Source: Desmonostoc muscorum LEGE 12446 (GTDB lineage: Bacteria; Cyanobacteriota; Cyanobacteriia; Cyanobacteriales; Nostocaceae). From it: a stretch of 64,000 bases of DNA. The notes beneath the pieces were generated by a model. That model was not told the origin of the DNA and ran no database searches. It was given only the letters and a program-made list of their open reading frames with translations. The stretch lies in assembly GCF_015207005.2 (NCBI RefSeq), contig NZ_JADEXS020000001.1:7649001-7713000 (forward strand). The letters are read 5' to 3'. Below, piece after piece: positions 4,870 through 26,028 of the stretch (position 1 is the stretch's first letter; each line of letters opens with the position of its first letter). A program made the translations under genes and the position numbers.

Positions 4870-4939
4870 ATCCACTTTTCCATCTGTATTAAAAGTTTTT
4901 TCAGGTGGCGATCGCTGTTGCTAAGGTCTGGTATATGCC

Positions 4940-5504: not shown

Positions 5505-7151
5505 ATGCAACACAACAAACACTTTGACACGATTATTATCGGGTCAGGACTTGGAGGAGCAACTTTGGCTAGCATCCTTGCAAAGCATGGTTTTAGTGTA
5601 CTTTTACTCGAAAAAGGTACTCATCCACGCTTCACAATTGGTGAAGCCATGTTGCCAGAGAGTGCAATGTGGATGTGGATTGTAGCAGAACGTTATGGTA
5701 TGCCAGAACTCAAGAATTTGACCGACGTAAAGGCAATGCGGGAGCATGTCTCATCAGGCTGTGGGGTAAAGCGTTTACTTGGGTTTGTGTACCACAAAGA
5801 AGGCGAAAAACAAAATCCAAACCAGACACATCAACTCATCTCGCCAGACTTCGCTTTAACATCTGAGAGCCATCTTTTCCGTGCAGATGTTGACCACTAT
5901 ATGGTGAAAGTCGCTCAAAGTTACGGCGCAGTCTATCGTGAATTAACAGACGTTGAGGAAATCAATTTTCACGAAGATTACGTACAGGTACAAACAAAAG
6001 ATGGTGAGGAATATACTTCTCGTTTTTTAGCAGATGGTTCGGGATTCCGCTCCTTAGTTGCAGAGAAATTTAATCTCCGAGAAAAACCTACTCGTTTAAA
6101 AACTAATACTCGCGGCATTTTTACCCATGTAGCTAACTTACCTGCATACGATGATTGTGTACCTAAAGAAGATTTGCCAGGGTTGAGTTGTAGATGGTAT
6201 GAAGGTACGCTGCACCATGTCTTTGATGGCGGTTGGATATGGGTTATTCCTTTTGATAACCATAAACTTTCCGAAAGCTCTCTTTGTAGCGTTGGGCTAA
6301 TGCTCAATGGCTACAAGTATCCCGAAAAAGACCCCGATCCCGAACGGGAATTTTACAGTATTGTTGAGCGGTTTCCCAGCATCGCCAATCATCTCAAAGA
6401 CCTCAAACCAGTACGTAAGTGGGTAAGTACTGATAGAATTCAATATTCATCCACAAAATCTGCGGGACATCGTTTTGCTTTGTTGAGCCATTCTCAAGGT
6501 TTTATCGATCCTCTATACTCCAGAGGCTTTGTTAGCACCTTTGAAAACCTTCATGCCTTAGCAGGTAGATTGATAGAAGCATTAAAAGATAATGATTTTT
6601 CAATTGAACGGTTTGCCTATGTAGATAGATTGCAAACAGCAAAACTGAATCATAATGACCAGCTCGTTTACAATACTTTTCGCTCCATGTCAGACTTCTC
6701 GCTATGGAATGCGATGACTCAACTCTGGTTAGCTTATCTAATTCTCAGTGATGTCTACCTATTCCGTACCTGTTTGAAATATCTATCTAGTGGTAGCCCA
6801 TCAGTCTTTATCAATCTCGATAAAGAGGAGCCTTATGCTATGGCACAAGCTCATTTCGCAGAAGTTTTGCAAGCTGTCATCGACGGTTATGAAGTGCTGC
6901 TAGATGAGGTTGATGCAGGAAAAATGCCTGCACAAGAAGCGGCTAATCACATGCTTTCCCTTTTGAAGCAATCTGAGTTATTACCGCGATCGATTTATCC
7001 TTGGGGAGATCCCGCAGCAAGACATCTAGATTTGGCTGCCAATCCGCAGTTAGCTGAACCATTGCTGTTTTCAGAACTAGATGATGCAACATTAGCATTA
7101 CTACAAAAATTGATGAAGGTTCAAAAACCAGAGTTTGCACAAGTAAGTTAG
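5505..7151 (+). CDS. FAD-dependent halogenase, first gene of the metabolite cluster
   Basis: The 548-residue protein has the FAD-binding GSGLGG motif at residues 13-18, a second FAD contact at PRFTIGEAMLP (41-51), and the halogenase signature W-x-W-x-I-P as WIWVIP (244-249). The FIDPLYSRGF segment (about 333-342) corresponds to the flavin/chloride-binding loop. Such enzymes use reduced FAD, O2 and halide to make hypohalous acid and halogenate an electron-rich ring. The sequence is closer in style to halogenases of phenols, pyrroles or free indoles than to the classical tryptophan halogenase further down. A partner flavin reductase is not seen in the window. Substrate and halide are unknown. 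Confidence 0.8.
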   Translation: MQHNKHFDTIIIGSGLGGATLASILAKHGFSVLLLEKGTHPRFTIGEAMLPESAMWMWIVAERYGMPELKNLTDVKAMREHVSSGCGVKRLLGFVYHKEGEKQNPNQTHQLISPDFALTSESHLFRADVDHYMVKVAQSYGAVYRELTDVEEINFHEDYVQVQTKDGEEYTSRFLADGSGFRSLVAEKFNLREKPTRLKTNTRGIFTHVANLPAYDDCVPKEDLPGLSCRWYEGTLHHVFDGGWIWVIPFDNHKLSESSLCSVGLMLNGYKYPEKDPDPEREFYSIVERFPSIANHLKDLKPVRKWVSTDRIQYSSTKSAGHRFALLSHSQGFIDPLYSRGFVSTFENLHALAGRLIEALKDNDFSIERFAYVDRLQTAKLNHNDQLVYNTFRSMSDFSLWNAMTQLWLAYLILSDVYLFRTCLKYLSSGSPSVFINLDKEEPYAMAQAHFAEVLQAVIDGYEVLLDEVDAGKMPAQEAANHMLSLLKQSELLPRSIYPWGDPAARHLDLAANPQLAEPLLFSELDDATLALLQKLMKVQKPEFAQVS

Positions 7152-7579
7152 AGAAAAATACAGTTGAGTGAGAGCAAACATAGACAATTAGATGCAGAAA
7201 AATTTACCTCAATGATGCGATGCGATCGCTAGGGCTTTGCTAGTGCAAAATCTAAAATCGTAAGTGTTACTAAAGGTCGAAAGATGAATATGCAATTTCG
7301 AGATAAATTTTAGTTTATCTCAAGAGCAGTGGATAAGATGCCTGCGTCTGCTTTGCTACTAATTGCCCATCACAAAATCCTATACAAGATATTTGGTTAA
7401 AAAGCAAAATTGGGGTTCGAGTTTTTGCGTTTTAATGCCAAAATTCTCTGATTTAAATCGGATGTAACAAGTGGTTCATCCGAAACAAAAATAAGTGATT
7501 TTATGCCTCTCCAGATATCAGGAGATTTTTGAGCAATCAAATATTAGCCCTATATCTACCTAAACCAGGAGATAAAAAT
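7152..7579. other. spacer between halogenase and first P450 gene
   Basis: This 428-bp stretch contains a HIP1 octamer and the ribosome-binding site AGGAGAT ahead of the P450 start at 7580. No intact gene or transposase remnant is seen. A second promoter for the P450 block could lie here. Confidence 0.5.
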
Positions 7580-9034
7580 ATGCAGATAGAATTACAGCCT
7601 TACACACAACAAAAAAAGATTCCAGGGCCTCCTGCATTGCCTATCGTCGGCAGTTTTCCTTTCATCGGTAAACGCCAATATTTAGCATACACTAAATTAG
7701 CCAAAGAATACGGTGATATTTTTCAGGTACGTATCTTTTTTCAAAATTTAGTTGTACTTAATAGACTTGAGACCATTAAAGAAGCTTTGCTAAAGCAGCA
7801 AGACGAATTTGCTGGTAGACCACAGATATATATCCTCAAAAATGCAATTGAAGGTAACTCCATAGGAGGTAGAGATTACAATGCGTTGTGGAAAAGACAC
7901 CGCGAGATTGCTGTTAATGCCCTACACACAGTTCTTGATAACAAGACAGTCGAGGAACAGGTTGTAGAGGAAGCCAATGAACTGACGAATATTTTACTAA
8001 GTTACAAAGGTCAACCTTTCCCACCAGAAGTGGACATAAGTCTATCATCTGCAAACTTTATGTCCAGAATTATATTTGGAGAAAAATATAACCGTGATGA
8101 TGAAGATTTTTTGAATCTTGGTAAAAATGCCCAGTCCTTTACTAATAAAAATGCAACTGCGGTGTTTTTTATATCGCTAATGAGCCTTCCTTTTATTCAA
8201 AAAAACGACAAGCTCAAAAAGGTTTTTCAAGAAAAATTGGGAATATGGAAAGAGGCAGCTAATATATCAGAAAGATTATTTCTGAAGAAATTAAATGAGC
8301 ATCGAGCATCATACAACCCCGAACATTTGCGAGGTGTGGCAGATGCATTATTAAAAGCTGCTAGTGAAATAGACGAATCTGAAAAACAAACCTTGGGTCT
8401 TACCGAAGAAGTGATTGTAGAAGCAACTGTACAGGAAATGATGGGGACAGGAACCCAGCCGGTTGCCCCAATATTACACTGGGCTATCCTTTACATGATT
8501 GCTTATCCAGATATTCAGGCTCAAGTCCAACAAGAGCTAGATGTATTCATAGCCAAAGAACAAGCAGTCAGATTTGAAGACCGCACAAAATTACGATTTA
8601 CACAAGTATGTATTTATGAAATTTTACGACATGCCCCTTCTTTTCCAATGGGTATTCCTCATGCTACGACTACTGACACAACTCTCAATGGTTACTTCAT
8701 TCCGAAAAACACACCCGTCTCGATTAATCTGTATAGTTTGACCCGTGACGATCGCTATTGGGAAGAACCTGAAAAATTCAACCCTCGTAGATTCTTGACC
8801 GAAAGTGGAGAAATCAGAGAAGACCTCCTCGATAAATACTACCCATTTGGTCTTGGAAAACGCAGATGTCTTGGAGAGTATTTTGGAAGACTGGCAATAT
8901 TCTCGTTTTTTGCCAATCTCATGCATAAGTGCAAATTTGAGAAGGTTGCAGATGAGAAGTTGACATTTGAAGGCTTACCAGGAGCAATTGTAACGCCGTC
9001 GCCGTACAAAGTTATAGTCAAGCCTCGATTTTAA
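7580..9034 (+). CDS. cytochrome P450, paralogue 1 of 3
   Basis: The start is ATG 7580, with AGGAGAT seven bases upstream; the same arrangement precedes both downstream paralogues. The 484-residue protein has the proline-rich KIPGPPALPIVGS hinge at the N terminus, the K-helix ExxR as EILRH, and the haem loop FGLGKRRCLG with the haem-ligand Cys at about 430. Helix I reads MMGTGTQPVAP where most P450s have an A/G-G-x-D/E-T core, so the acid-threonine pair is replaced by Gln-Pro. Overall style is like animal CYP1/CYP2 enzymes. No membrane anchor is present. Redox partners are not in the window. The reaction is unknown; indole oxidation or coupling is an inference from context. Confidence 0.85.
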   Translation: MQIELQPYTQQKKIPGPPALPIVGSFPFIGKRQYLAYTKLAKEYGDIFQVRIFFQNLVVLNRLETIKEALLKQQDEFAGRPQIYILKNAIEGNSIGGRDYNALWKRHREIAVNALHTVLDNKTVEEQVVEEANELTNILLSYKGQPFPPEVDISLSSANFMSRIIFGEKYNRDDEDFLNLGKNAQSFTNKNATAVFFISLMSLPFIQKNDKLKKVFQEKLGIWKEAANISERLFLKKLNEHRASYNPEHLRGVADALLKAASEIDESEKQTLGLTEEVIVEATVQEMMGTGTQPVAPILHWAILYMIAYPDIQAQVQQELDVFIAKEQAVRFEDRTKLRFTQVCIYEILRHAPSFPMGIPHATTTDTTLNGYFIPKNTPVSINLYSLTRDDRYWEEPEKFNPRRFLTESGEIREDLLDKYYPFGLGKRRCLGEYFGRLAIFSFFANLMHKCKFEKVADEKLTFEGLPGAIVTPSPYKVIVKPRF

Positions 9035-9102
9035 ACTTGTGTTGGCGATAGTGAAATTCAATTTTGTTCAACTTTTGTCTAGGCAACTTAGGAGATAATA
9101 AT

Positions 9103-10536
9103 ATGAAATTAGGATTACAGCCTGAGACACAATTCAATAAGATTCCAGGGCCACCTGTATTACCTATTATCGGAAGTTTGCCTTTCATCGACAAACACCA
9201 ACATCTGGCATTCACTAAGCTAGCAAAAGAATACGGTAGTATTTTCCAAATACGTATTTTTTTCAAAAACATAGTTGTACTTAATGGGCTTGAGACTATT
9301 AGACAAGCTTTACTAAAGCAATCAGAGAATTTTGCTGGTAGACCAGAATTAAGTACCATTAAAAAGGTAATCAATGGTAAAAGTATTGGAGGTAGAGATT
9401 ACGGTTTGATATGGAAAAGACACCGTGAAATTGCCGTTAACGCTCTGCACATGTTCCTCGAACGCAAAACAAACTCTATTGAACAGCAAATTATAGAAGA
9501 CGCTGTTGAACTCAGTAATATCTTTCTGAGTTATGGAGGTCAACCTTTTGAACCTGATATGGATATCGGTCTGTCTATTACAAATATCATGTCCAAAATT
9601 TTGTTTGGAGAAAAACATCGCCGCGATAATCAGGATTTAGCAGATCTTGTCAAACTTACTCAAGTTGCAAGCCGCAATGGTGTAGGTTCCATGCGATTTG
9701 ATTTTATGCCAAAACCCCCAGAAATTATTTTCCAAACCTTCCAGAAATCCATAGATGATATCTTGGAAAGCATAGTTTTGAATAAATTAAAGGAGTATCA
9801 GGAATCATATAACCCCAACAATTTACGGGGTATGGTCGATGCTTTAATAAAAGGTGCTAGAGAGTTAGACGAATCAGAAAGACAAACATTGGGTCTCACC
9901 GAAGATCTGATTGTGGAAGCCACAGCACAGGAAATGATGGGTTCCGGAACACAGCCAGTTTCTCCTATTTTGGGCTGGGCAATCCTTTATATGATTGCTT
10001 ATCCCGATGTTCAGGCTGAAGTCCAACGAGAACTGGATAAAGTTATAGGTAAAGAAAAACAAGTGTGTTTTGAAGACCAGACAAGATTGCCATTTACGCA
10101 AGCTTGTATCCATGAGATTTTGCGACATGCTCCTTATTTTCCCACTGCTATTCCACATTCTACGACGGCTGACACCACCATCAATGGTTACTTCATTCCT
10201 AAAAATACACCTGTATACATCAATCTGTATAGTTTGACCCGTGACGATCGCTATTGGCAAGAACCTGAAACATTTAACCCTCACAGATTTTTGAGCGACA
10301 ACAGAGAAATCAGAGAAGACCTCCTAGATAAGTACTACCCATTCGGTCTCGGAAAACGCAGATGTTTTGGAGAGTACTTAGGTCGTCTGGAAGTATTTCT
10401 ATTCTTTAGTAATTTGATGCATCGATGCAAATTTGAAAAAGTTGCTGGAGAACGGTTGAGTTTTGCATGTCAAACAGGAGCAGTGACAATGCCTAAAGAA
10501 AGTTACAAAGTTATAGTTAAGCCTCGATTTAATTAA
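9103..10536 (+). CDS. cytochrome P450, paralogue 2 of 3
   Basis: The start ATG 9103 follows TTAGGAGATAATAAT. The 477-residue protein has the KIPGPPVLPIIGS hinge, ExxR as EILRH, and haem loop FGLGKRRCFG with Cys at about 421. Helix I reads MMGSGTQPVSP, again lacking the acid-threonine pair. It is strongly similar to both neighbours along its length but differs in the segment around residues 190-240, where substrate-recognition loops usually lie. It sits 68 bp after paralogue 1, so cotranscription is likely. A different substrate or regiochemistry from its siblings is inferred, not shown. Confidence 0.85.
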   Translation: MKLGLQPETQFNKIPGPPVLPIIGSLPFIDKHQHLAFTKLAKEYGSIFQIRIFFKNIVVLNGLETIRQALLKQSENFAGRPELSTIKKVINGKSIGGRDYGLIWKRHREIAVNALHMFLERKTNSIEQQIIEDAVELSNIFLSYGGQPFEPDMDIGLSITNIMSKILFGEKHRRDNQDLADLVKLTQVASRNGVGSMRFDFMPKPPEIIFQTFQKSIDDILESIVLNKLKEYQESYNPNNLRGMVDALIKGARELDESERQTLGLTEDLIVEATAQEMMGSGTQPVSPILGWAILYMIAYPDVQAEVQRELDKVIGKEKQVCFEDQTRLPFTQACIHEILRHAPYFPTAIPHSTTADTTINGYFIPKNTPVYINLYSLTRDDRYWQEPETFNPHRFLSDNREIREDLLDKYYPFGLGKRRCFGEYLGRLEVFLFFSNLMHRCKFEKVAGERLSFACQTGAVTMPKESYKVIVKPRFN

Positions 10537-10634
10537 AGCTTTACTCTTCCTAATGAAAGCTAACTAGTCACACTAACAACCTAAATACTAGATAAATGGG
10601 ATTGAGAAGTATAGACAACTTAGGAGATAATAAT

Positions 10635-12068
10635 ATGAAATTGGAATTACAGCCTGACACACAACCTAATAAAATTCCGGGGCTACCTGTATTACCATTA
10701 ATTGGAAGTTTGCCCTTTATAGATAAACACCAATATTTATCATTCACTGAACTAGCAAAAAAATACGGTGATGTTTTTCAGGTACGCATATTTTTTCAAC
10801 CTATAGTTGTACTCAATGGGCTTGATACCATTAGACAAGCTTTGCTAAAGCAGCAAGATGATTTCGCTGGTAGACCGCATTTTTATACCCTATTGACTGC
10901 AATTAAGGGTAGGACTATTGGGGGTAGAGATTACGGTTTGCTGTGGAAAAGGCATCGTGAAATTGTTGGTAACGCTCTGCACGCGTTCGTTAATAACAAA
11001 AAAGCTGCCATTGAACAGCAAATTATAAACGACTCAGTTGAACTGGCAAATATCTTGTTGTCCTATAAAGGTCAAGTTTTCGATCCAGAATTAGACATTG
11101 GTTTGTCTGTAGCAAATGTCATGTCCAAAATTTTATTTGGAGAAAAATACAGCCGTGACGATGATGATTTTATTACCTTTGTCAAATGCGCTCACTATTT
11201 TAGTGACAATTCCGCAGGGAATCTATTAGCTGATTTCTTACCGCAAGCCCGTATATTTCCCGACCAAGGGTTACAGAAAAGGCAATACGTTCTTGATGCT
11301 TTGGAAAGGGTGGTTCTCAAGAAATTAAATCACCATCGAACCTCCTACAATCCCGAAAATCTGCGAGGAGTCATAGATGCTTTAATAACAGCTGTTAGAG
11401 AATTAGACGAGTCAGAGAAACAAAACTTGGGTCTTACCGAAGACCTGATTGTGGAAGGAACACCACAGGAAATGATGGGGACAGGACTACAACCTAGTGC
11501 CCCGCTATTACGCTGGGCTATCCTTTACGCGATCGCTAATCCAGATATTCAAGCTCAAGTACAGCAAGAACTAGACACAGTTGTAGGTAAAGAGCGAGTG
11601 GTGCGCTATGAGGATCGTGTGAAACTGCCATTTACAGAAGCTTGTATCTATGAGCTTTTGCGGCATCCCCCTCATTTTCCGTTTGGTCTCCCACATGCTA
11701 CAACCCACGATACAACTATCAATGGTTACTTCATTCCTAAAAACACTCCTGTAATTGCTAATCTGTATAGCTTGACTCGCGATGAACGCTTTTGGGAAGA
11801 ACCGGAAAAATTCAACCCGCAACGATTTTTAACGCCGAACAGAGAAATCAGAGAAGATCTACTAGATAAGTACTACCCGTTCGGTTTGGGAAAACGCAGA
11901 TGTCTTGGCGATTACTTAGGACGGCTTGAAATATTCCTGTTCTTTGCCAACCTCATGCATAAATGCAAATTTGAAAAGGTTGCTGGGGAGAAGTTGAGTT
12001 TCAAAGGCACACCAGGAGCTCATGTACTACCAAAGAGCTACAAAGTTATAGTCAAGCCCCGATTCTAG
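10635..12068 (+). CDS. cytochrome P450, paralogue 3 of 3
   Basis: The start ATG 10635 follows the same leader, TTAGGAGATAATAAT, as paralogue 2. The 477-residue protein has the KIPGLPVLPLIGS hinge, an ExxR as ELLRH, and haem loop FGLGKRRCLG with Cys at about 423. Helix I reads MMGTGLQPSAP: besides Gln-Pro for acid-Thr, the preceding Thr is Leu. It lies 98 bp after paralogue 2 and 71 bp before the tryptophanase start. The three genes appear to be a tandem triplication followed by divergence in the substrate-recognition regions. Confidence 0.85.
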   Translation: MKLELQPDTQPNKIPGLPVLPLIGSLPFIDKHQYLSFTELAKKYGDVFQVRIFFQPIVVLNGLDTIRQALLKQQDDFAGRPHFYTLLTAIKGRTIGGRDYGLLWKRHREIVGNALHAFVNNKKAAIEQQIINDSVELANILLSYKGQVFDPELDIGLSVANVMSKILFGEKYSRDDDDFITFVKCAHYFSDNSAGNLLADFLPQARIFPDQGLQKRQYVLDALERVVLKKLNHHRTSYNPENLRGVIDALITAVRELDESEKQNLGLTEDLIVEGTPQEMMGTGLQPSAPLLRWAILYAIANPDIQAQVQQELDTVVGKERVVRYEDRVKLPFTEACIYELLRHPPHFPFGLPHATTHDTTINGYFIPKNTPVIANLYSLTRDERFWEEPEKFNPQRFLTPNREIREDLLDKYYPFGLGKRRCLGDYLGRLEIFLFFANLMHKCKFEKVAGEKLSFKGTPGAHVLPKSYKVIVKPRF

Positions 12069-12139
12069 ACTCGAGTTGGTCGAGTGTGAATTACCAGAAG
12101 TTGAGATTAGAAAATAACAAAAGATATTTAAAGATAAAT

Positions 12140-13564
12140 ATGGCATTTCATCCCCCAGAACCATTTCGGATCAAGATGGTTGAACCCATTAAACTACTCG
12201 ATCGCGATGCCCGTGAGGCAGCTATACGTCGAGCTAATTACAATCTGTTCAGTCTACGAGCAGAGGACATCTTCATTGATTTGTTTACCGATTCTGGCAC
12301 CAGCGCCATGAGCCAGAAACAATGGGCAGCTATGCTTGAAGGTGATGAAGCCTATGCTGGGGCGCGTTCGTATTTCCGTCTCACAGAAGTTATAGAGGAT
12401 ATTTTCGGTTTTTCCTATTTTTTACCCACCCACCAGGGTCGAGCAGCAGAAAATATTTTGAGCGCCTGTTTAGTCAAACCAGGCGATTATATTCCTTCTA
12501 ACACCCATTTTGATACAGGCTATGCCAACATCTGCGATCGCGGAGGCTACCCTGTCAATTTTGTTATTGATGAAGCTCACAATCCTACTTTATACCACCC
12601 TTTTAAAGGGAATATGGATATTCAAAAGTTACGAGACTTTATCAAACAGACAGGGCCAGACCAAATTCCCTTTGGCATGATTACCATAACGAACAACGCT
12701 GGAGGTGGTCAACCAGTTTCTATGGAAAATCTCCGAACTGTTTCCCAGACTTACAAAGAATTCGGGATTCCATTTTTCATAGATGCTTGTCGCTTTGCAG
12801 AAAATGCCTACTTTATCAAACTGCGAGAACCAGGTTATGCAGACAAAAGTCCCTTGGAAATCAGCCGTGAAATTTTTGCGCTAGCTGATGGTATGACCAT
12901 GAGTGCCAAAAAAGACGGCATTGTTAATATTGGTGGCTTTATAGCCATGAACAATGAAGCACTATTTGAACAGGCACGCAATGAGTTACTCATTCGCGAG
13001 GGATTTCCCACCTACGGAGGGCTGGCTGGTCGAGATTTAGATGCAATGGCTGTTGGCTTGCGTGAAGCACTGGAGGAAGAATATCTCGCCTATCGTTTGG
13101 GTCAGACAGCTTATCTGGCAGCGCGTTTACGGGAATTAGAGATTCCCATCATTGAACCATCAGGAGGACATGCAGTATACGTGGATGCAGGGTTGTTATT
13201 ACCCCATATTCCCCAAGAACAATTTCCAGGTCAATCTCTTTCGGTGGAACTCTATTTAGAAGGTGGAATACGCACAGTAGAAATCGGCTCACTAGGTTTT
13301 GCTCATCCCGAACCACAGACAGGCCAAATGGTGTATCCCAAATTAGAGTTGGTTCGTTTGGCACTTCCTAGACGGGTATACACGCAAAGTCATTTAGATT
13401 ATGTGGCTGAAACATTCGGCAAAACCGTAGCGCGGCGCGAGCAAATACCTGGCTATCGGCTAATTTATGCAGCTAAGTTAATGCGACAGTTCACTGCCCA
13501 GCTTGAGCCGATTCAATTAGAGGCTCATCTGTCAGAACCATCTTTAGCAATTGGCAGGCTCTAA
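12140..13564 (+). CDS. tnaA: tryptophanase (tryptophan indole-lyase) of the TnaA/tyrosine phenol-lyase family
   Basis: This pyridoxal-phosphate enzyme would split L-tryptophan into indole, pyruvate and ammonia. ATG 12140 gives 474 residues, close to the 471 of E. coli TnaA; upstream in-frame codons are not counted. The PLP-lysine motif is SAKKDGIVNIGG (Lys at about 258). At the position where tyrosine phenol-lyase has its substrate-binding Arg (MERG), this protein has EIGS (Ile at about 382) as in tryptophanases, which decides the call. The C-terminal RQFTA (Gln at about 450) replaces the RHFTA of E. coli TnaA, whose His463 influences tryptophan specificity, so the substrate could be a modified tryptophan. 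Confidence 0.85.
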   Translation: MAFHPPEPFRIKMVEPIKLLDRDAREAAIRRANYNLFSLRAEDIFIDLFTDSGTSAMSQKQWAAMLEGDEAYAGARSYFRLTEVIEDIFGFSYFLPTHQGRAAENILSACLVKPGDYIPSNTHFDTGYANICDRGGYPVNFVIDEAHNPTLYHPFKGNMDIQKLRDFIKQTGPDQIPFGMITITNNAGGGQPVSMENLRTVSQTYKEFGIPFFIDACRFAENAYFIKLREPGYADKSPLEISREIFALADGMTMSAKKDGIVNIGGFIAMNNEALFEQARNELLIREGFPTYGGLAGRDLDAMAVGLREALEEEYLAYRLGQTAYLAARLRELEIPIIEPSGGHAVYVDAGLLLPHIPQEQFPGQSLSVELYLEGGIRTVEIGSLGFAHPEPQTGQMVYPKLELVRLALPRRVYTQSHLDYVAETFGKTVARREQIPGYRLIYAAKLMRQFTAQLEPIQLEAHLSEPSLAIGRL

Positions 13565-13751
13565 GTTTACCACCTGAAGAATACATAAGAAAAAACGGCG
13601 TTGCTGATTCAGAAGATGAATTTACATCACGCAGAGGCGCAGAGTCGCAGAGAGTAAAAGTTGAGAAGAGTTGATTTTTAAATTTCATATTCAAATTCAG
13701 CAACGCCGAAAAAACTATAGAGGCACAGAGAATACAGAGGAAGAGATAAAA
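13565..13751. repeat. low-complexity cyanobacterial spacer repeat
   Basis: The spacer between tryptophanase and the KMO-like gene contains purine-rich repeats such as GCAGAGGCGCAGAGTCGCAG and GAGGCACAGAGAATACAGAG. The second also places AGGAAGAG as a ribosome-binding site ahead of ATG 13752. No gene is seen. Confidence 0.5.
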
Positions 13752-15104: not shown

Positions 15105-15178
15105 GCTAACTTTCAACATAGTCTTATAGGTTTGTGATTAACAATTACAAAGACGTTTATTAATCCAGGTTTAAACAA

Positions 15179-15985
15179 ATGATTATTCTCATGAGTGCAG
15201 CGACTCCTAACGCAGAAATTGAGTATATTATCCAAGAGTTACGTCACTGGAAAATCATCCCAGAAAAAATTATAGGTAAACATAAAGTTGCAATTGGTTT
15301 AGTAGGTGATACCTCGGCTATCAATCCTCAACAAATTCAACAGCTAAGTCCTTTTATCGAGCAGGTTTTACGAATAGATAAACCCTTTAAACGGGTTAGT
15401 CTGCAATTCCGCAATGGAGAACCTTCTGCGGTATTTGTATCAACACCTAATGGATTTGTAGCATTTGGTCAGCATTATCCTTTAGTGACAATAGCTGGGC
15501 CATGCTCAGTAGAAAATGAAGACATGATTCTACAGACGGCTCAAAGAGTGAAGGCGGCTGGTGCAAAGTTTTTGCGAGGAGGAGCATACAAGCCGCGGAC
15601 ATCTCCTTATTCTTTTCAAGGGCATGGTGCGATCGCCTTAGAAATGCTTGCAACAGCTCGTCAGGCTACAGGTTTGGGTATTGTGACTGAAGTCATGGAT
15701 ACAGCTGATGTTGAAAAAGTCGCCAGGGTTGCTGACATCATCCAAATCGGTACTCGCAACATGCAAAATTTTTCACTGTTGAAACGAGTAGGGTCGATAG
15801 GTAAGCCAGTTTTGCTGAAGCGAGGTCTATCGGCAACAATTGAAGAGTGGTTAATGGCAGCTGAATACATTGTGGCAGCAGGTAACCCGAATGTGATTTT
15901 GTGCGAACGGGGAATTCGCACCTTTGACCAGCAATATACACGGAATACACTCGATCTGGCTGCCATACAGGGCAAACGCATCTAA
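15179..15985 (+). pseudogene. aroF: DAHP synthase (type I beta), 5' part, interrupted by an ISAs1-type element
   Basis: DAHP synthase joins phosphoenolpyruvate and erythrose 4-phosphate, the first step of the shikimate pathway. Codons 1-263 are present: an N-terminal ferredoxin-like domain, then the barrel with [27 protein letters not shown] and [10 protein letters not shown]. After AAI the frame runs into the inserted element and stops within five codons. The missing 3' part, with the metal-binding DPSH and the EVHP segment, resumes at 17793. Bases 15179-15967 plus 17793-18104 give an exact 366-codon frame. The truncated product lacks barrel strands and metal ligands and is probably inactive. 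In the cluster the gene would boost aromatic precursor supply. Confidence 0.85.
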
Positions 15986-16394
15986 ATATTGACGAGCCTG
16001 GATCATGATGAAATACACCAAGACTCAAACTACATAAGACTTTGAGGAAATTAAATCTCACTCAGCATGAAAATGATAATCATTGTGAGGGGGAGTTAGA
16101 GGCAGCCGACGGCTGCCTGAATTTTCACGGTCAGTTCTCCACTTAAGAGCGTAGGTTTTCTCACAGTCTGATTCTCAATAGTTTTAGATTAATGACTAGG
16201 AATCACGGGAATATCAGCGCAAAGAAAAACTCAATTTATGCGATCGCTACCGGGAAGGGGGGTTACGCCATCGCTAACTGATTAAAGTGACTTTTACAAA
16301 TGGCGTGAAAAGTCAGGACGGCTACCTGTTAAGGAATATGGTATTCTTGCAGGAACTCCAAAGAAGAATTTCATTCATTCTTATTCGCCTCTCT

Positions 16395-17528: not shown

Positions 17529-17782
17529 ACTAATATATCAGAAGTTAATTTTAAATATTTAGGAAGAATTTCACTTTTCCTCTAGATAAACATAGTTTTA
17601 TAAACTCGAATATTGAGTTATTTTAGTATCAATAAATAATCATTGAGCTTCCGATAAGGTAATTCATGCTTTTTGAGAATACTTCATTTATTTTATTTAT
17701 CATTTTATGAATTTTTACAATTATCTATGTCATTTTGAAATCTCTCTTAGTTTTTATTAGTAAATAAGGTGCGTTTCCCCTA
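17529..17782. other. non-coding right arm of the ISAs1-type element
   Basis: About 250 bp of AT-rich sequence lies between the transposase stop and the right terminal inverted repeat. No gene or strong hairpin is seen. Confidence 0.5.
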
Positions 17783-17792
17783 GGCTGCCATA

Positions 17793-18104
17793 CCCGTTTT
17801 GCGATCGCTAACTCACTTACCCATCATGATTGACCCCAGTCACGGTACTGGTATCGCAGACTACGTACCAACAATGGCTAAAGCCGCGATCGCTGCTGGT
17901 ACAGATTCCCTGATGATTGAAGTTCACCCCAACCCAGCTAAGGCACTTTCAGATGGGCCTCAATCTCTGACACTGGAAAAATTTGAGCAATTAATGAAGG
18001 AGATTGCTCTTTTGGGCCAATACTTTGGTCGTTGGCATCACAACCATAACCCAACTGTAACTCCAAATATTGTTCGACAAGTTTCTTCGATGGCGAGTAT
18101 CTAA
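17793..18104 (+). pseudogene. aroF: DAHP synthase, 3' part
   Basis: This fragment continues the barrel domain in frame after the ISAs1 insertion: PVLRSLTHLPIMIDPSHGTG, then the MIEVHPNPAKALSDGPQSL segment with the metal-binding acids of type I DAHP synthases. A TTG at 17799 could allow a short separate translation, but the product would be a partial barrel. The break is explained by the adjacent target duplication. It ends 111 bp before the anthranilate synthase start. Confidence 0.85.
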
Positions 18105-18215
18105 ACAAGTTAATCATCTTTGAAACAAATAAATGTCAAAGAAAACTTCATAGCGATCGCTCTTGAGTAAGGAGTTTTATTGCTAATTTTTAAAGACGTT
18201 GGAGAGGAATTTACA

Positions 18216-20465: not shown

Positions 20466-20585
20466 CTCAAGCTGATGTCGATCGGGATAGGCAGGGCAAG
20501 AAGTTTAATATTAAGCAGATCGCTTTTTATCAAACTATCCTACATTCTACTGATAATTTTGGCAAAATAAACGGATTAAGATTGC

Positions 20586-22226
20586 ATGAAACTCATACGA
20601 CTACTTTTGAAAACTTCCTGGAAAAACCTGACTTTAGCCATGCTAACGGGGTTAATCAGCGGAGTTAGTAACGCAGGACTGATTGCTCTCATTAACATCT
20701 CTTTAACGAATCCAGAAGTACCAAAATCAGTTCTCGCTAGTAGTTTCGTTGGTCTTTGCTTGTTAATTTTGCTGACAAATGCTCCATCTCAAATATTGCT
20801 TAGTATGTTGGCACAACATGTCATCTTCGACCTAAGAATGCAATTAACTCGGCGTATTCTAGCTGCTCCCTTGCGCCAATTGGAAGAGCTTGGAAGTCCA
20901 ACATTACTAGCAAGCTTGACAGAGGATGTGGAGGTAATTTCTAAAGCATCGCTTTCCCTTTCCATTCTATGCCTGAATATAGCGATGTTACTTGGCTGTA
21001 TGCTCTATCTGAGTTGGCTATCAGTAAAAGTGTTTTTACTGTTAGTAGTGTATATATTTTTGGGCTTCTCTTTCTTCGGTTTCTTGATGGGCAAAGGCAG
21101 ACGTTTGTTCGAGCTTGCCCGCAAACAACAAGACCGATTGCTTGCTCACTTCCAAACCACTACTGAGGGTATTAAAGAACTTAAACTACACCATCAGCGC
21201 CGTCAAGCATTTGTCCGTGAAGATGTAGAAGCTACAGCTGCGGCTTCCCGACGTTACCAAGTAGCAGCAATGACAATGTTTGGAATAGTCGGGGGTTCGG
21301 CAATCCTCGTGTTATTTATTCCCATAGGATTGTTGTTGTTTGTTTTACCTTTGGTGAGTGACATATCGATGAGTATTGTTTCAGGCTTTGTTCTGACAAT
21401 AGTATTCATGCTTATGCCTCTGCAAATGATTTCAGCAATGTTGCCCGAATTAATGAGAGCTAATGTTGCTGTCAACAAGATAGAGTCTTTGGGATTATCG
21501 CTGGCCGCTCAAACAACTGAACTTGATATTTCTCTATCCTCATACTTCAAACTTCAGCAGCAGAAACTAGAGTTAATCGAAGTGACTCATGCTTATCAAC
21601 GAGAAGGAGAAGTAAGTCAATTTATTTTAGGGCCAATTAACTTAATATTTTCTCCCGGAGAATTGGTCTTTATTGTCGGTGGTAACGGTAGTGGAAAGTC
21701 TACATTGGTGAAGTTGATAGCCGGACTTTATATTCCTGAAAGTGGAACAATTCGCTTAGGTCGAGAAACCATTACTGAGGCTAACCGAGAGTGGTATCGC
21801 CAGCATTTTTCAGTAGTGTTTTCAGATTTTTACTTGTTTGACCGTCTCTTAGGATTTGAACGCGATCGAATAGATAAACAAACTCAACACTACCTCAAAC
21901 AGCTGCAACTAGACAAAAAAGTGCAAGTGAAAGATGGACATTTCTCCAGCACTGCACTTTCACAAGGTCAACGCAAACGCCTTGCACTCTTGACTGCTTA
22001 TTTAGAAGACCGCCCTATTTACGTATTCGACGAGTGGGCATCTGACCAAGACCCTATGTTTAAGCAGATTTTTTACACCCAACTAGTGTCAGAGTTAAAG
22101 CAGCGTGGTAAGACCGTTTTAGTCATCAGCCATGACGACCACTACTTTTACTTAGCAGATCGAATCATAAAACTAGATAGCGGCAAAGTTGAGTATGACC
22201 AACACCCTCTCAGCTTAGCTTTGTAA
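20586..22226 (+). CDS. ABC exporter of the cyclic-peptide (SyrD/PvdE-like) family
   Basis: A fused half-transporter of 546 residues: a membrane domain with about six helices (roughly 15-300) and a nucleotide-binding domain. Walker A is GGNGSGKST (about 362-370), the signature is LSQGQRKR (about 458) and Walker B with its catalytic Glu is IYVFDEWASDQD (about 480). This family exports siderophores and lipopeptides in gamma-proteobacteria and is found in cyanobacterial metabolite clusters. It would act as a homodimer in the cytoplasmic membrane. Position inside the cluster and a four-base ORF-to-ORF gap upstream of the methyltransferase region suggest that it exports the cluster product. Confidence 0.85.
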   Translation: MKLIRLLLKTSWKNLTLAMLTGLISGVSNAGLIALINISLTNPEVPKSVLASSFVGLCLLILLTNAPSQILLSMLAQHVIFDLRMQLTRRILAAPLRQLEELGSPTLLASLTEDVEVISKASLSLSILCLNIAMLLGCMLYLSWLSVKVFLLLVVYIFLGFSFFGFLMGKGRRLFELARKQQDRLLAHFQTTTEGIKELKLHHQRRQAFVREDVEATAAASRRYQVAAMTMFGIVGGSAILVLFIPIGLLLFVLPLVSDISMSIVSGFVLTIVFMLMPLQMISAMLPELMRANVAVNKIESLGLSLAAQTTELDISLSSYFKLQQQKLELIEVTHAYQREGEVSQFILGPINLIFSPGELVFIVGGNGSGKSTLVKLIAGLYIPESGTIRLGRETITEANREWYRQHFSVVFSDFYLFDRLLGFERDRIDKQTQHYLKQLQLDKKVQVKDGHFSSTALSQGQRKRLALLTAYLEDRPIYVFDEWASDQDPMFKQIFYTQLVSELKQRGKTVLVISHDDHYFYLADRIIKLDSGKVEYDQHPLSLAL

Positions 22227-22304
22227 ATTTTGTTCGGAAAATTTGAGATAGATTCCACAATTTTTTTCGTCATTCTTTCATATACAAATTCATCGGAAAT
22301 CATC

Positions 22305-23348
22305 ATGTTTCAAACAGAAGCTATTCACGGAACCATCCAAACTAACCTGAATCTGCCCGAAAAACTGTTGCAAATGAGCAATGGTACGTTTGTCACACAA
22401 GCAATTTACGTAGCAGCCAAGTTAGGTATTGCTGACTTACTCAAAGACGGTGCAAAAAGCAGTGACGAACTAGCAAAATTAACTGATGTAGATGCTCAAT
22501 CTCTGTATCGGATGATGCGTGCTTTATGTAGTATTAGTATATTTACTGAAGTTGATGATCGAAAATTTCAGTTAACGCCCCTTGGAGAATGTCTCCAAAC
22601 TGATATTCCAGGTTCAATGCGTGCTTTTGCGATCGCTCTTGGTGAACCTTGGTTCTGGCAAGCCTGCGGTAGCCTGCTTGAGAGCATTAAAACAGGAAAA
22701 AATGTTTTTGAGAATCTCTACGGGATGGAAGATCGATCGTATCTAATGCAACACCCAGAAATAGTTCTAATGCTCCAAGGAGCAATAAACGCTTTTACCA
22801 CATCGCTGATCCCTACAATGCTGGCTAGCTATGACTTTTCGGCATTCAGCAAGATTGTTGATGTTGGCTGCGGACAAGGCGCTCTCATGGTCGCAATCCT
22901 CAAGGCAAATCCAACAATGAAGGGTATCCTCTTCGACCAACCACCCATTGTTCAAGGAGCAAAACATCTGCTCAAAGCAAAAGGAGTTGCAGAACGCTGT
23001 GAAATTGTCGGAGGAGACTTCTTGCAGTTCGTGCCAAAAGGAGGGGATGGCTATATCTTGAAGCACATTCTCCACATCTGTGATGATAAAAATGCTCTCG
23101 CCATCCTCAAGAACTGCCACCAGGCGATGGTGGACAATGGTAAATTGATCGTTTTTGAGGCAGTGATTCCATCAGCTAACCAGCCATCTTTAAGTAAGTG
23201 GTTCGATCTGCACATGCTTTTGATGGGTGATGGTCGTGAGCGTACAGAAACCGAATATCGAGAGCTTTTAGCTGCGGCTGGCTTTATGGTCAGGAAAGTT
23301 TTTTCTACCCAGGCTCCCGTAGATGTGATTGAGGCAGTGAAAGTCTAG
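22305..23348 (+). CDS. SAM-dependent O-methyltransferase (plant-type, family 2)
   Basis: ATG 22305 gives 347 residues. The N-terminal winged-helix dimerisation domain (MSNGTFVTQAIYVAAKLGIADLL) is followed by the SAM-binding motif I, VDVGCGQGA (about 184-192), and the segment GGDFLQF. ILKHILHICDD contains the His that acts as base in this family. Relatives methylate hydroxyl groups on aromatic rings or polyketides. In this cluster a hydroxyindole or related phenol is the likely acceptor, possibly made by the KMO-like enzyme or a P450. The ribosome-binding site is weak, so translation may be coupled to the upstream exporter gene. Confidence 0.85.
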   Translation: MFQTEAIHGTIQTNLNLPEKLLQMSNGTFVTQAIYVAAKLGIADLLKDGAKSSDELAKLTDVDAQSLYRMMRALCSISIFTEVDDRKFQLTPLGECLQTDIPGSMRAFAIALGEPWFWQACGSLLESIKTGKNVFENLYGMEDRSYLMQHPEIVLMLQGAINAFTTSLIPTMLASYDFSAFSKIVDVGCGQGALMVAILKANPTMKGILFDQPPIVQGAKHLLKAKGVAERCEIVGGDFLQFVPKGGDGYILKHILHICDDKNALAILKNCHQAMVDNGKLIVFEAVIPSANQPSLSKWFDLHMLLMGDGRERTETEYRELLAAAGFMVRKVFSTQAPVDVIEAVKV

Positions 23349-23438
23349 ATTGCCAACAGGGTTAACAACAAATGATGAAAATATCTTTTCCTATTCTCTA
23401 AAAAATATCTAATGAAAGCCTTTCGGAGGAATTTCATT

Positions 23439-24317
23439 ATGTCACAGCAAATTCAGAACATCGTAATTGTTGGTGGTGGTTCTGCTGGTTGGATGACCGC
23501 AGCATATTTGAGCAAAGCTTTGAGCAAAAATATGCAAATATCTTTAGTTGAGTCTTCCAACATTACAACAATTGGAGTTGGTGAGGCTACTTTTAGTACC
23601 ATCAAAGTATTCTTTGATTTTCTCGGCTTACAAGAGAGCGAATGGATGCCAAAATGCAATGCCAGTTACAAGATGGCAATTAAGTTCGTCAACTGGAATG
23701 CACAAAGACGACACTTTTACCATCCTTTTCAAAGGTATGAAATGGTAGAAGGTTTTGATATTGCAGAATGGTGGCTGAAAATGAAGCGCAGCGAAGAGCC
23801 ATTCGATTATGCTTGTTTTCTCATCCCATTACTATGCGATAATCAGCGGTCTCCTAGATATTTTGATGGCACTGTTTTTGATCGTAAAGTTCAAAACTTA
23901 TTCTCTGGCGAGTCTATCCCGGAGAAAAATGTATTGGCAGATCTCAAAGTTCAGTACCCTTACGCCTATCATTTTGACGCTAATTTGTTGGCAAGATTCC
24001 TAAAAGATTATGCCAAGCAAAGAGGTGTGACACAAATTGTTGATGACGTTATGGATGTGAAGCTATCAGAAAATGGCAGCATCGATAGTATTATTACCAA
24101 AGAGCATGGCAATATCAATGCAGACCTATTTATAGACTGTACTGGTTTCCGCGGTCTGTTGATTAATAAAGCTTTGAGGGAACCATTCATTTCTTTCTCT
24201 GAGTCCTTATTGTGCGACAGAGCGATCGCCATGCAAGTACCAACCGATATTAAGAAGGATGGCATCAACCCTTATAGAACCCATTTGACATCTAAGAAGG
24301 TGCTGCAAGCCTCTTAA
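23439..24317 (+). pseudogene. tryptophan-halogenase homologue, 5' part, interrupted by an IS5-type element
   Basis: ATG 23439 follows GGAGG nine bases upstream and is preferred over ATG 23412. The FAD motif GGGSAGW lies near the N terminus, VGEATFSTIK follows, and the catalytic-type Lys of PrnA/RebH is present at about residue 78 in CNASYKMAIKFVNW. The frame enters the insertion sequence after NPY and stops at 24317. Joining 23439-24276 to 25217-26028 gives an exact 549-residue protein, close to the ~540 of tryptophan halogenases. The truncated product lacks the W-x-W-x-I-P motif and is expected to be inactive. Confidence 0.9.
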
Positions 24318-25212
24318 TCATTAGCCTGATGAAGCAGATATTGAGTTTGGCAGTGGCACTAACCAGGGTTCGTTCAAAGTTCTTAACCAGAATTTTACAG
24401 CGCTCCATCCAAGCATTGGAGCGTTCGATCACCCATCTAGCTATTGCCGGAACAAATCCAGATTTTCCTTGTGCCGCTTTCTCTTGTTTTGAGGGTTTCG
24501 TAGAAAGTTGAAACTGAATTTTGGTCATGATCTCTGGGTAAATTCGCTCTAACTCCTGAGTCAAATATTCTGGGTGATACCCATGATCTAGCAGGATAGT
24601 AATCTTGGGAATATCGATAGGTTTTGACTTGAAGTAGTCGATGTTGAGAGTAAACATCTCAATTAATCCGGCATCATCCGAGACATTGGCGCGAGTACAG
24701 AGCGTAAAAAAGGGAAACCCAAGGGTGTCAATAGCCAAATGCCTTTTAATACCGTTGGTGGCTTTGTAGAAGCAAAAACCTTTCGACTCCACACTGGCGT
24801 TGCAGGTATTTTTCACTGCTTGGGAGTCAATGATGATCAATGTCGTCCAGTGCGGTTTTTTTTTTACCTGTTCACGCACTTGTCCATGTAAGACACTCAT
24901 CAGTTCCTCAAATACCCCGGCTGCTCGCCACTGTTTGTAGTGCCAATATACAGTGGAATAAGGGGGGAGGTCTTTAGGTAAGTCTTGCCAATTGCATCCA
25001 TTTTTTAGTTGATAGAGAATTCCATTGAAGATATCTCGCTTTGGCCAGTTGGTCGGTCGAGTCTGCTTCTTAGTCGGTAATATCTCTTGCAATAAGGGTT
25101 CAAAAATTTCCCATTCTGCATCAGTGAGGTTGCTGGAATACGCCATTAGTATTGGATTTTAGATGCTGAGGAGTACCTTAATTCAAAACCTCACAAGATG
25201 TCAAATGGGTTC
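24277..25212 (-). mobile_element. IS5-family insertion sequence, 936 bp
   Basis: The ends are perfect 17-bp inverted repeats, GAACCCATTTGACATCT at 24277-24293 and its complement at 25196-25212. The target TATA is duplicated at 24273-24276 and 25213-25216. The single transposase gene reads opposite to the halogenase it interrupts. The ATG of the downstream halogenase fragment (25198) lies within the right end of the element. Confidence 0.9.
24292..25146 (-). CDS. IS5-family transposase
   Basis: The 284-residue protein has the N-terminal LTDAEWEIFEPLL motif, the WHYKQWRAAGVFEEL segment and DDE acids in IIIDSQAVKN, ILLDHGYHPE and VIERSNAWMERCK, all typical of IS5-type elements. The frame is intact, so it could be functional. 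The codon run of eight A residues (as T on the plus strand near 24860) could permit slippage but the frame does not need it. Confidence 0.9.
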   Translation of the reverse strand: MAYSSNLTDAEWEIFEPLLQEILPTKKQTRPTNWPKRDIFNGILYQLKNGCNWQDLPKDLPPYSTVYWHYKQWRAAGVFEELMSVLHGQVREQVKKKPHWTTLIIIDSQAVKNTCNASVESKGFCFYKATNGIKRHLAIDTLGFPFFTLCTRANVSDDAGLIEMFTLNIDYFKSKPIDIPKITILLDHGYHPEYLTQELERIYPEIMTKIQFQLSTKPSKQEKAAQGKSGFVPAIARWVIERSNAWMERCKILVKNFERTLVSATAKLNICFIRLMIKRLAAPS

Positions 25213-26028
25213 TATACAACCGCTACTGCGCTGACATCTGGTTGGGTTTGGAATATACCTCTGTATGGCAGAATTGGTACGGGATATGTTTACTCTAGTG
25301 AGTTTCTCTCAGAAGAAAAGGCAGAACAGGAATTTCGCCAGCACTTAGGAGTGGCTGCACAGAATTGCAAGGCATCGCACATTAAAATGCGGGTGGGACG
25401 AAACCGCAATTCATGGGTAAAGAACTGTGTAGCAATTGGTCTATCCAGTGGATTTGTAGAACCATTGGAATCTACGGGCATATTCTTTATCCAACACGGT
25501 ATTGAAGAGTTGCTCGCTCACTTCCCAGACAAAACCTTCAACGAGGAATTTATCAAAAGCTACAACAAAACTATTGCTGAGTGCATAGATGGTGTTCGTA
25601 ACTTTTTGACGCTGCATTACTGTGCCAGTGATAGAGCAGATACGCCATTCTGGAAAGCAACTAAGCATAAGATTGTTGTTCCGGAAGAATTACGCGAAAG
25701 ATTGCGGTTGTGGAAAAATCGATTGCCAAATAGCAAAAACATCGATCGCAATTATCATGGCTTTGAGTCTTACTCTTATTCTGTGATGTTGCTTGGACTC
25801 AATTATGCGCCTTTAAAGAATCTACCTGCTTTGGATCGTATTGACGAACGAAACGCCATCCATGCATTTAATGTCATTAAGGAAAGAGCTAATTACTTGA
25901 AAGGTACTTTACCATCACAGTACGAATACTTAACTTATATCATTAAGTCTCAAGAGCAATCGGAGTATCTGAGCGAAAATAGATTTGATACTAATTTTGT
26001 ATATCGCTCTGCAATTTTAAACAAATAA
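25198..26028 (+). pseudogene. tryptophan-halogenase homologue, 3' part
   Basis: The fragment carries the halogenase signature W-x-W-x-I-P as GWVWNIPLYGRIGTGYVYSS and the conserved GLSSGFVEPLESTGIFFIQ segment that closes the flavin pocket. True halogenase sequence begins at 25217, after the TATA duplication; the first residues (MSNGF) come from the insertion sequence. An ATG in the insertion end could start a separate C-terminal polypeptide, but there is no good ribosome-binding site. The gene end at 26028 is the end of the cluster. Confidence 0.9.

What the first reader, a model, noticed from the sequence alone, without database searches (positions are those of the whole stretch)
5505..26028. 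Possible undescribed cluster for a halogenated, methylated indole-type metabolite
Eleven plus-strand genes combine tryptophan supply (DAHP synthase, TrpEG), indole release (tryptophanase), two flavin halogenases, three P450s, a KMO-like hydroxylase, an O-methyltransferase and an ABC exporter, with no NRPS or PKS. Aetokthonotoxin assembly uses a tryptophanase, flavin halogenases and a biindole-forming P450, and polybrominated biindoles are known from Rivularia, so a polyhalogenated indole or biindole is a reasonable class. The KMO, TrpEG, DAHP synthase and P450 triplication make this set different. The product is an inference.
Basis: partly seen in the sequence, partly recalled or inferred. Interest (0 to 1): 0.85.

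Follow-up and report, generated by a model that had tools for sequence, protein, structure and literature searches.

The report
Broken halogenated-indole coupling gene cluster
A Nostoc genome carries a probably transferred and now insertion-broken set of genes that, in its less damaged relatives, most likely turns tryptophan into halogenated, oxygenated and joined indole compounds by a route for which I found no description.

Summary
The gene set is real. Eleven co-directional genes (5505-26028) encode a CtcP/PltM-type halogenase, three P450s, a tryptophanase, a KMO-like hydroxylase, DAHP synthase, TrpEG, an ABC exporter, an O-methyltransferase and a PyrH-type tryptophan halogenase. Here the DAHP synthase and tryptophan halogenase genes are each split by a transposase gene. 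Relatives of the core lie in Pleurocapsales LEGE 06147 and four Nostoc genomes, the latter with extra tryptophan-synthesis, FMN reductase and FAD synthetase genes.

Three results bear on function. (1) The lyase has tryptophanase, not tyrosine phenol-lyase, pocket residues, plus a clade-typical Gln at the indole-contacting His position. (2) All three P450s lack the I-helix acid-alcohol pair, as does the coupling enzyme Bmp7; P450s of two sister loci group with a Hormoscilla P450 whose best solved relative is Bmp7. (3) No tryptophan dioxygenase was found in this genome, so kynurenine is an unlikely KMO substrate.

Best reading: halotryptophan, haloindole, then hydroxylated, methylated, oxidatively coupled (bi)indole, like aetokthonotoxin assembly but with different enzymes. 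The product is inferred. Most of a ~29-kb block is closer to LEGE 06147 than to other Nostoc and is missing from this site in a conspecific genome, suggesting horizontal transfer. New variant of a known kind.

The parts
1825..3843 (-). CHASE2-domain protein (probable sensor kinase), part of the block shared with LEGE 06147
   Evidence: PF05226; 77% identical in LEGE 06147
4159..4875 (-). response regulator, divergent from the cluster
   Evidence: PF00072; 91% identical in LEGE 06147
5505..7151 (+). hal1: flavin halogenase of the CtcP/PltM type
   Evidence: Tetracycline 7-halogenase 424 bits, PltM 315 bits; Lys89 and WIWVIP kept in 6 of 6 loci
7529..9034 (+). P450 a, predicted oxidative-coupling type
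   Evidence: PF00067; I-helix EMMGTGTQPVAP lacks the acid-alcohol pair
9064..10536 (+). P450 b, counterpart of the first LEGE P450
   Evidence: 88% identity; EMMGSGTQPVSP; tree
10596..12068 (+). P450 c, counterpart of the second LEGE P450
   Evidence: 87% identity; EMMGTGLQPSAP; tree
12086..13564 (+). tryptophanase with D143/I400/Q468
   Evidence: PF01212, NF009709 669 bits; pocket residues
13671..15104 (+). KMO/VioC-like FAD hydroxylase
   Evidence: KMO chains up to 303 bits; VioC model 208 bits, below its cut-off of 760
15179..15985 (+). DAHP synthase, N-terminal piece
   Evidence: PF00793, PF18152
16287..17528 (+). transposase gene lying between the two pieces of the DAHP synthase gene
   Evidence: PF13808, PF01609
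17799..18104 (+). DAHP synthase, C-terminal piece
   Evidence: PF00793
18180..20465 (+). fused anthranilate synthase TrpEG
   Evidence: TIGR01815 1199 bits, cut-off 739
20586..22226 (+). ABC exporter, TIGR01194 type; among the relatives found only in LEGE 06147
   Evidence: 491 bits, cut-off 286
22230..23348 (+). SAM O-methyltransferase
   Evidence: PF00891, PF08100
23412..24317 (+). hal2: tryptophan halogenase, N-terminal piece (interrupted gene; the frame runs past the halogenase reading)
   Evidence: PF04820 255 bits
24292..25146 (-). IS4/5-type transposase gene lying inside hal2; 40 copies scored in this genome, all 100% identical
   Evidence: PF13340
25198..26028 (+). hal2: tryptophan halogenase, C-terminal piece
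   Evidence: tryptophan 5-halogenase 8fov 283 bits
26019..26106 (+). 88-bp match reaching over the start of the LEGE FAD synthetase gene; no protein match to the rest of that gene in the window
26664..28199 (+). HlyD-type adaptor (DevB-like)
   Evidence: PF13437; 84% in LEGE
28589..29851 (+). MacB/FtsX permease (DevC-like)
   Evidence: PF12704, PF02687; 88% in LEGE
30033..30704 (+). ABC ATPase (DevA-like), end of the shared block
   Evidence: PF00005; DNA aligned with LEGE to 30697

Best explanation
A probably horizontally acquired cluster for halogenated, oxygenated and O-methylated indoles joined by P450 oxidative coupling, most likely biindoles. Steps: (1) DAHP synthase and TrpEG, with TrpC/A/B/D where present, raise the tryptophan supply [genes shown; role by homology]. 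(2) The two-component tryptophan halogenase makes 5- or 6-halotryptophan [homology; position open]. (3) A tryptophanase with an altered pocket releases the haloindole [residues shown; substrate inferred]. (4) The KMO-like enzyme hydroxylates an indole intermediate [inferred]. (5) The CtcP/PltM-type halogenase adds halogen to the activated hydroxy-arene [inferred from family]. (6) P450s without the acid-alcohol pair join the units by radical coupling [motif and related clade shown; reaction inferred]. (7) O-methylation (perhaps sulfation in LEGE 06147) and export finish the route [homology]. In this strain two genes are split by transposase genes, so the full route should not run.
For: Cluster conservation in five other genomes. 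In the four Nostoc loci: trpC 4 of 4 (one cut by a contig end), trpA 3 of 4, trpB 4 of 4, trpD 4 of 4, FMN reductase 4 of 4, FAD synthetase 4 of 4. Tryptophanase residues D/I in 6 of 6 cluster copies, against T/R in this genome's second lyase, which has the tyrosine phenol-lyase pattern. Gln468 in 41 of the 46 closest homologues against 2 of the other 74 listed; the split at rank 46 was set after seeing the ranking. The complete P450 acid-alcohol pair is in only 5 of the 120 listed homologues (two of these 120 are this window's own proteins); P0218 (Hormoscilla) also lacks it; an unrelated P450 in the N. favosum locus keeps 'ET'. P0218's best solved match is 9ms3 'Polybrominated aromatic compounds synthase', 342 bits against 224 for the next, and 9ms3 also lacks the pair. 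P450s of two sister loci (CCC1, IND1) fall on one side of a branch with P0218, support 100/99. No tryptophan dioxygenase in this genome. Precedent: AetE and AetB do steps 3 and 6 in aetokthonotoxin assembly (passages of PMC12210266, PMC10306068 and PMC10224044).
Against: No product or activity is known. Loss of the acid-alcohol pair is not proof of coupling, and 35 of the 120 homologues, as well as CCC1, IND1 and IND2, keep an acidic residue at the first position of the pair. The window's P450s lie outside the P0218 clade; P450 c is only 44% identical to P0218, and the best solved matches of P450 a, the only window P450 I tested so, are animal CYP1/CYP2 (242 bits) ahead of 9ms3 (207 bits). That P0218 is itself a coupling enzyme is recalled, not shown. 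The KMO-like enzyme keeps R105, Y119 and Y419, which in KMO bind the amino-acid carboxylate (roles recalled), so it may act on an amino acid rather than on free indole; the N. indistinguendum locus, as held, has no KMO-like gene. The OMT was found in 4 of the 6 loci, not beside hal1 or hal2 in N. indistinguendum or NIES-2108, so methylation is not universal; the exporters and regulators were matched strongly only in LEGE 06147.
Confidence: 0.55

Rival explanations
1. Monomer route: the P450s and the KMO-like enzyme are ordinary hydroxylases, and the product is a halogenated, methoxylated or sulfated mono-indole (indoxyl- or indigoid-type).
For: OMT in 4 of 6 loci and a sulfotransferase in LEGE 06147; best solved matches of P450 a are CYP1/2 hydroxylases.
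Against: All three window P450s lack the acid-alcohol pair used in oxygen activation (role recalled), and three tandem hydroxylases seem excessive.
Confidence: 0.2
2. Mixed coupling: the units joined are not two indoles but an indole and another aromatic, or more than two indoles, each P450 making a different bond.
For: Three distinct P450 lineages in the window; one or two in the relatives; Bmp7 joins both bromophenols and bromopyrroles (PMC7918430 passages).
Against: No gene for a second aromatic precursor was recognised inside the cluster.
Confidence: 0.15
3. Kynurenine-type route: the KMO-like enzyme makes a hydroxykynurenine or hydroxyanthranilate unit, and the tryptophanase is accessory.
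For: KMO-like sequence and three of four kynurenine-binding positions kept (residue roles recalled).
Against: PF03301 absent in 5 of 6 genomes, with only a partial match in NIES-2108; the N369 position is His in 5 of 5. The IDO search had no positive control and counts for little.
Confidence: 0.06
4. The lyase works in the synthetic direction, or on another amino acid, so that no free indole is made.
For: The indole-contacting His is replaced by Gln (role recalled); such lyases are reversible (recalled); it fails the tryptophanase equivalog cut-offs.
Against: Tryptophan-type D/I pocket beside a tryptophan halogenase and tryptophan biosynthesis genes.
Confidence: 0.08

Closest known systems
Aetokthonotoxin (aet) pathway
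   Same: Tryptophan halogenation, a tryptophanase (AetE) releasing haloindole, a second halogenase (AetA) acting on indole, and a coupling P450 (AetB); from passages of PMC12210266, PMC10306068 and PMC10224044.
   Different: AetF is a single-component halogenase closer to monooxygenases (PMC10306068 passage); here the tryptophan halogenase is of the PyrH/SttH type. No nitrile synthase was recognised; KMO-like enzyme, OMT, DAHP synthase and trp genes are extra. The aet sequences were not compared.
Bmp7 and polybrominated diphenyl ether P450s
   Same: 9ms3 (identified as Bmp7 from recall) is the best solved match of the Hormoscilla relative P0218; both, like the window P450s, lack the acid-alcohol pair.
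   Different: The bmp route starts from chorismate-derived 4-hydroxybenzoate or from proline (PMC7918430 passages); here the feed is tryptophan.
Hapalindole/ambiguine/welwitindolinone clusters
   Same: Dedicated TrpE, TrpC, TrpA, TrpB, TrpD and DAHP synthase, with trpF outside (PMC4236562 passages); NIES-2108 carries DAHP synthase and trpEG-C-A-B-D in one run, and no trpF was recognised there.
   Different: Those have isonitrile and prenyltransferase genes (PMC4236562 passages); none was recognised here.
CtcP and PltM halogenases
   Same: They are the closest solved relatives of hal1 (424 and 315 bits); the aligned Lys and WxWxIP are kept.
   Different: The substrate here is unknown; a hydroxyindole is inferred from the phenolic substrates of CtcP and PltM (recalled).

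Membership tests
Tryptophanase (versus tyrosine phenol-lyase) | Asp at TPL Thr124 and non-Arg at TPL Arg381 | tested here: met
   D143 and I400; 6 of 6 cluster copies; this genome's second lyase has T/R as control. Residue roles recalled.
Tryptophanase (versus tyrosine phenol-lyase) | His at E. coli His463 | tested here: not met
   Gln in 6 of 6 cluster copies and 41 of the 46 closest homologues. Role of His463 recalled.
Tryptophanase (versus tyrosine phenol-lyase) | Curated tryptophanase cut-offs | tested here: inconclusive
   Passes subfamily model NF009709 (669, cut-off 285) but not the equivalogs NF053783 (587, cut-off 750) and TIGR02617 (505, cut-off 826); TIGR02618 tyrosine phenol-lyase also fails (567, cut-off 721).
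Two-component tryptophan 5/6-halogenase | Full-length similarity to PyrH/SttH-type enzymes | tested here: met
   Unsplit LEGE relative: 633 bits to 8fov (Trp 5), 617 to 5hy5 (Trp 6). Position 5 or 6 not resolved.
Two-component tryptophan 5/6-halogenase | Complete open reading frame | tested here: not met
   Split by a transposase gene in the window; single frames of 543-570 aa in the five relatives.
CtcP/PltM-type halogenase | Conserved Lys and WxWxIP | tested here: met
   Lys89 and WIWVIP, 6 of 6 loci
Canonical monooxygenase P450 | I-helix acid-alcohol pair | tested here: not met
   Gln-Pro in all three window P450s
Coupling P450 (Bmp7-like) | Forms aryl-aryl or aryl-ether bonds | not testable with these tools
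   Only motif and clade placement
Kynurenine 3-monooxygenase | Kynurenine supply in the genome (TDO) | tested here: not met
   No PF03301 match in this genome; 1 partial match in 6 genomes
Kynurenine 3-monooxygenase | R84, Y98, N369, Y404 | tested here: inconclusive
   Three kept, N369 is His in 5 of 5; roles recalled
Aetokthonotoxin-type cluster | AetD-type nitrile synthase and AetF-type halogenase | tested here: inconclusive
   No such gene was recognised among the Pfam hits of the cluster, but the aet sequences were not compared.

The most novel reading that the evidence does not exclude
Three divergent coupling P450s act in turn on one halo-hydroxyindole pool released by a re-tuned tryptophanase, giving methoxylated, halogenated oligo-indoles or indole-aryl hybrids: an indole counterpart of the Bmp7 biaryl route, spread among cyanobacteria and, in this genome and LEGE 06147, packed in a ~29-kb block with its own sensor and exporter.
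Probability: 0.25. Interest if true: 0.78.

Novelty: new variant of a known kind. Interest (0 to 1): 0.57.

Why it matters
It predicts a second cyanobacterial route from tryptophan through tryptophanase to coupled haloindoles, with a different kind of tryptophan halogenase from that of aetokthonotoxin and with P450s related to the Bmp7-like group. Less damaged homologues sit in named strains, so the product class can be tested directly. Polybrominated biindoles are reported from Rivularia firma (PMC12210266 passage); the enzymes for them were not named in the passages I read. The clade-typical tryptophanase residue is a concrete lead on how such lyases may accept substituted tryptophans.

Tried and rejected
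Tyrosine phenol-lyase identity of the lyase: considered because solved TPL chains score as high as tryptophanases; set aside on pocket residues. Ordinary KMO: set aside for want of TDO. The IDO search rang in no control genome, so it is not used as proof of absence. Other tryptophanase copies as second clusters: around L073, L074 and L075 no other gene of this cluster was recognised in the 10-13 kb held. Direct repeats between the two end regions tested (1001-1900 and 30501-31000): longest exact match 10 bases, so no transfer mechanism is offered. Paper search for Bmp7: of what it listed I read passages of one review. A search for the strain name CCCryo 231-06 listed 8 papers, none on such metabolites by title. 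Halogenase position (C5 or C6) could not be settled.
Full report
What is there. The DAHP synthase gene and hal2 are each in two pieces around a transposase gene. The transposase gene inside hal2 has 40 scored copies in the genome (of 63 candidates), all 100% identical, so this break is probably recent.

Extent and transfer. With LEGE 06147 the DNA aligns in order from window 1806 to 30697, so the shared block also holds a CHASE2 protein, a response regulator and a DevBCA-type exporter. LEGE 06147 has no counterpart of P450 a and has a sulfotransferase, a trpA-trpD remnant and an FAD synthetase gene that the window lacks. GyrB of this genome is 98.3-98.6% identical to three Nostoc relatives (N. 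favosum gives two pieces of 98% and 92%) and 82% to LEGE 06147. Much of the cluster shows the opposite order: hal1 is 91% identical to LEGE but 74-82% to the Nostoc copies and the OMT 79% against 63-64%; TrpEG is 87% against 75-76%, and the N-terminal piece of hal2 90% against 78-79%. Three genes fit less well or not at all: the tryptophanase (89% to LEGE, 90% to N. favosum, 82% to the others) and the KMO-like enzyme (72% to LEGE, 71-72% to Nostoc), and the DAHP synthase (about 74-75% to all). I read this as horizontal transfer of a partly mosaic block. In a genome of the same species (G403) the two flanks lie 3.7 kb apart with other DNA between, and the cluster-type tryptophanase is not found in it; the neighbourhood is also rearranged.

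Distribution. hal1 at E <= 1e-60 occurs in 3 of 386 sampled genomes of the phylum including this one, the other two being only 39-42% identical. Cluster-type tryptophanase (80% or more) occurs in 5 of 53 genomes of the genus, this one included; 15 more have only a copy of about 50% identity. By contig number and position the other four appear to be the assemblies of the named Nostoc loci. At E <= 1e-190 the tryptophanase is in 4 of 388 genomes of the order sample: this one, a Nostoc, G602 (by contig and position LEGE 06147) and G684, whose 69% copy shows no other cluster gene nearby. It is in 1 of 386 of the phylum sample, this one. The protein search lists many further close copies (7999 hits among 8000 scored candidates, the best 120 listed), including Scytonema and Nostoc names, so the true spread is wider than these samples.

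Relatives. Five named loci carry hal1, one or two P450s of this type, the tryptophanase, TrpEG and an unsplit hal2; in N. indistinguendum hal2 was found on another contig. The KMO-like gene is in 4 of these 5, the DAHP synthase in 4 of 5 (not in the N. favosum stretch held) and the OMT in 3 of 5. In the four Nostoc loci trpC is found in 4 (cut by a contig end in N. indistinguendum; in front of hal1 in N. favosum), trpA in 3 (in CCCryo 231-06 the match falls into two pieces), trpB in 4, trpD in 4, FMN reductase in 4 and FAD synthetase in 4 (Pfam for NIES-2108 and one FAD synthetase). 'Unsplit' therefore does not mean that every gene of every relative is sound. The ABC exporter, DevBCA set, CHASE2 protein and response regulator were matched strongly only in LEGE 06147.

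Lyase. Solved tryptophanases and tyrosine phenol-lyases score alike, and the lyase fails the equivalog cut-offs of both. At the two specificity positions it has Asp143 and Ile400, the tryptophanase pattern; this genome's second lyase has Thr and Arg there, the phenol-lyase pattern, which serves as a control. At the position of the indole-contacting His it has Gln468: among the 46 best hits (the query's own protein included) 41 Gln, 4 His and 1 Tyr; among hits 47-120, 71 His, 2 Gln and 1 Leu. The cut at 46 was chosen after seeing the list. The roles of these residues are recalled.

P450s. The acid-alcohol pair of the I-helix is Gln-Pro in all three. Among 120 listed homologues (two are this genome's own) 5 have the full pair, all Asp-Thr, and 35 keep an acid at its first position. 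P0218 from Hormoscilla spongeliae, 44% identical to P450 c, has as best solved match 9ms3, 'Polybrominated aromatic compounds synthase' (342 bits against 224 for CYP1A1), which also lacks the pair in the printed alignment. That 9ms3 is Bmp7 and that P0218 comes from a diphenyl-ether cluster is recalled. In a tree of 50 rows (a subset of the 132 aligned, chosen by rank spacing plus named rows; midpoint root) the first P450s of the CCCryo and N. indistinguendum loci group with P0218 at 100/99. The window P450s lie outside that group, and the best solved matches of P450 a are animal CYP1/2. Coupling is therefore the favoured reading, not a shown fact.

Hydroxylase and halogenases. The KMO-like enzyme keeps R105, Y119 and Y419 and has His at the N369 position in 5 of 5. 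Tryptophan dioxygenase is missing in 5 of 6 genomes, with one partial match in NIES-2108. hal1 is nearest to tetracycline 7-halogenase and PltM among solved proteins. hal2 is of the tryptophan 5/6-halogenase type.

Mechanism. Tryptophan supply, then halotryptophan, then haloindole by the tryptophanase, then hydroxylation, further halogenation, O-methylation and oxidative coupling, then export. The order of the middle steps is inferred. Aetokthonotoxin assembly is the closest working model, and hapalindole clusters are the closest model for the supply genes.

Novelty. No paper listed (none listed), 26, 28, 39, 42 or 58 names this cluster in its title or abstract start. I read passages, not whole texts, of seven papers (PMC12210266, PMC10306068, PMC7918430, PMC4236562, PMC4558948, PMC4557006, PMC10224044); none of these passages describes it. 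This does not exclude description in papers or databases not held here.

Noticed in passing
L073:1116-5156: A second tryptophanase of N. indistinguendum (pocket D/L/Y) sits beside a Trp_DMAT-family prenyltransferase and an FMN_dh-family protein, perhaps a prenylated-indole mini-cluster.
   Followed up: partly
L076:10184-11632 (own genome C1 about 6753187): A second lyase with the tyrosine phenol-lyase pocket pattern (T/R/F); 15 of 53 genomes of the genus have only a copy of about 50% identity to the query, whose pockets were not checked.
   Followed up: partly
window 24292-25146: This transposase gene has at least 40 copies in the genome, all identical: a recent burst.
   Followed up: partly
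L032:2608-8555: The N. favosum locus has an extra set: another P450 with a normal 'ET' pair, a short-chain dehydrogenase, a PHBH-type hydroxylase and a pyridine-nucleotide reductase, suggesting product variants.
   Followed up: partly
L029:4678-5778: Frame joining part of trpA to part of trpD in LEGE 06147, a trace of a deletion of the trp genes.
   Followed up: no
L030:3549-4347: The trpA match of Nostoc sp. CCCryo 231-06 falls into two overlapping pieces, so this copy may be frame-shifted or misassembled.
   Followed up: no
L036:12294-16287: A second tryptophan halogenase in NIES-2108 beside an FMO-like enzyme and an unassigned 237-aa protein.
   Followed up: no
L038:201-5360: In N. indistinguendum another halogenase gene of this type is in two pieces around a frame with a weak transposase match, followed by an OMT 43% identical to that of the window.
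   Followed up: no
L034:8182-8760: A polyketide-cyclase-like (PF03364) gene lies between the DAHP synthase and TrpEG genes of NIES-2108, and a 92% copy in CCCryo 231-06; its role is unknown.
   Followed up: no
L010:4150-21271: A CtcP-like halogenase (39%) in a Saprospiraceae bin lies among several large unassigned frames (1898, 708, 1201 aa).
   Followed up: no
window 34167-40055: A 1962-aa multi-PAS sensor histidine kinase just beyond the block.
   Followed up: no
L089 against the window: In the same-species genome the counterpart of window 48824-42308 lies upstream of that of window 1-1165, in reversed orientation: a rearrangement at this site.
   Followed up: partly
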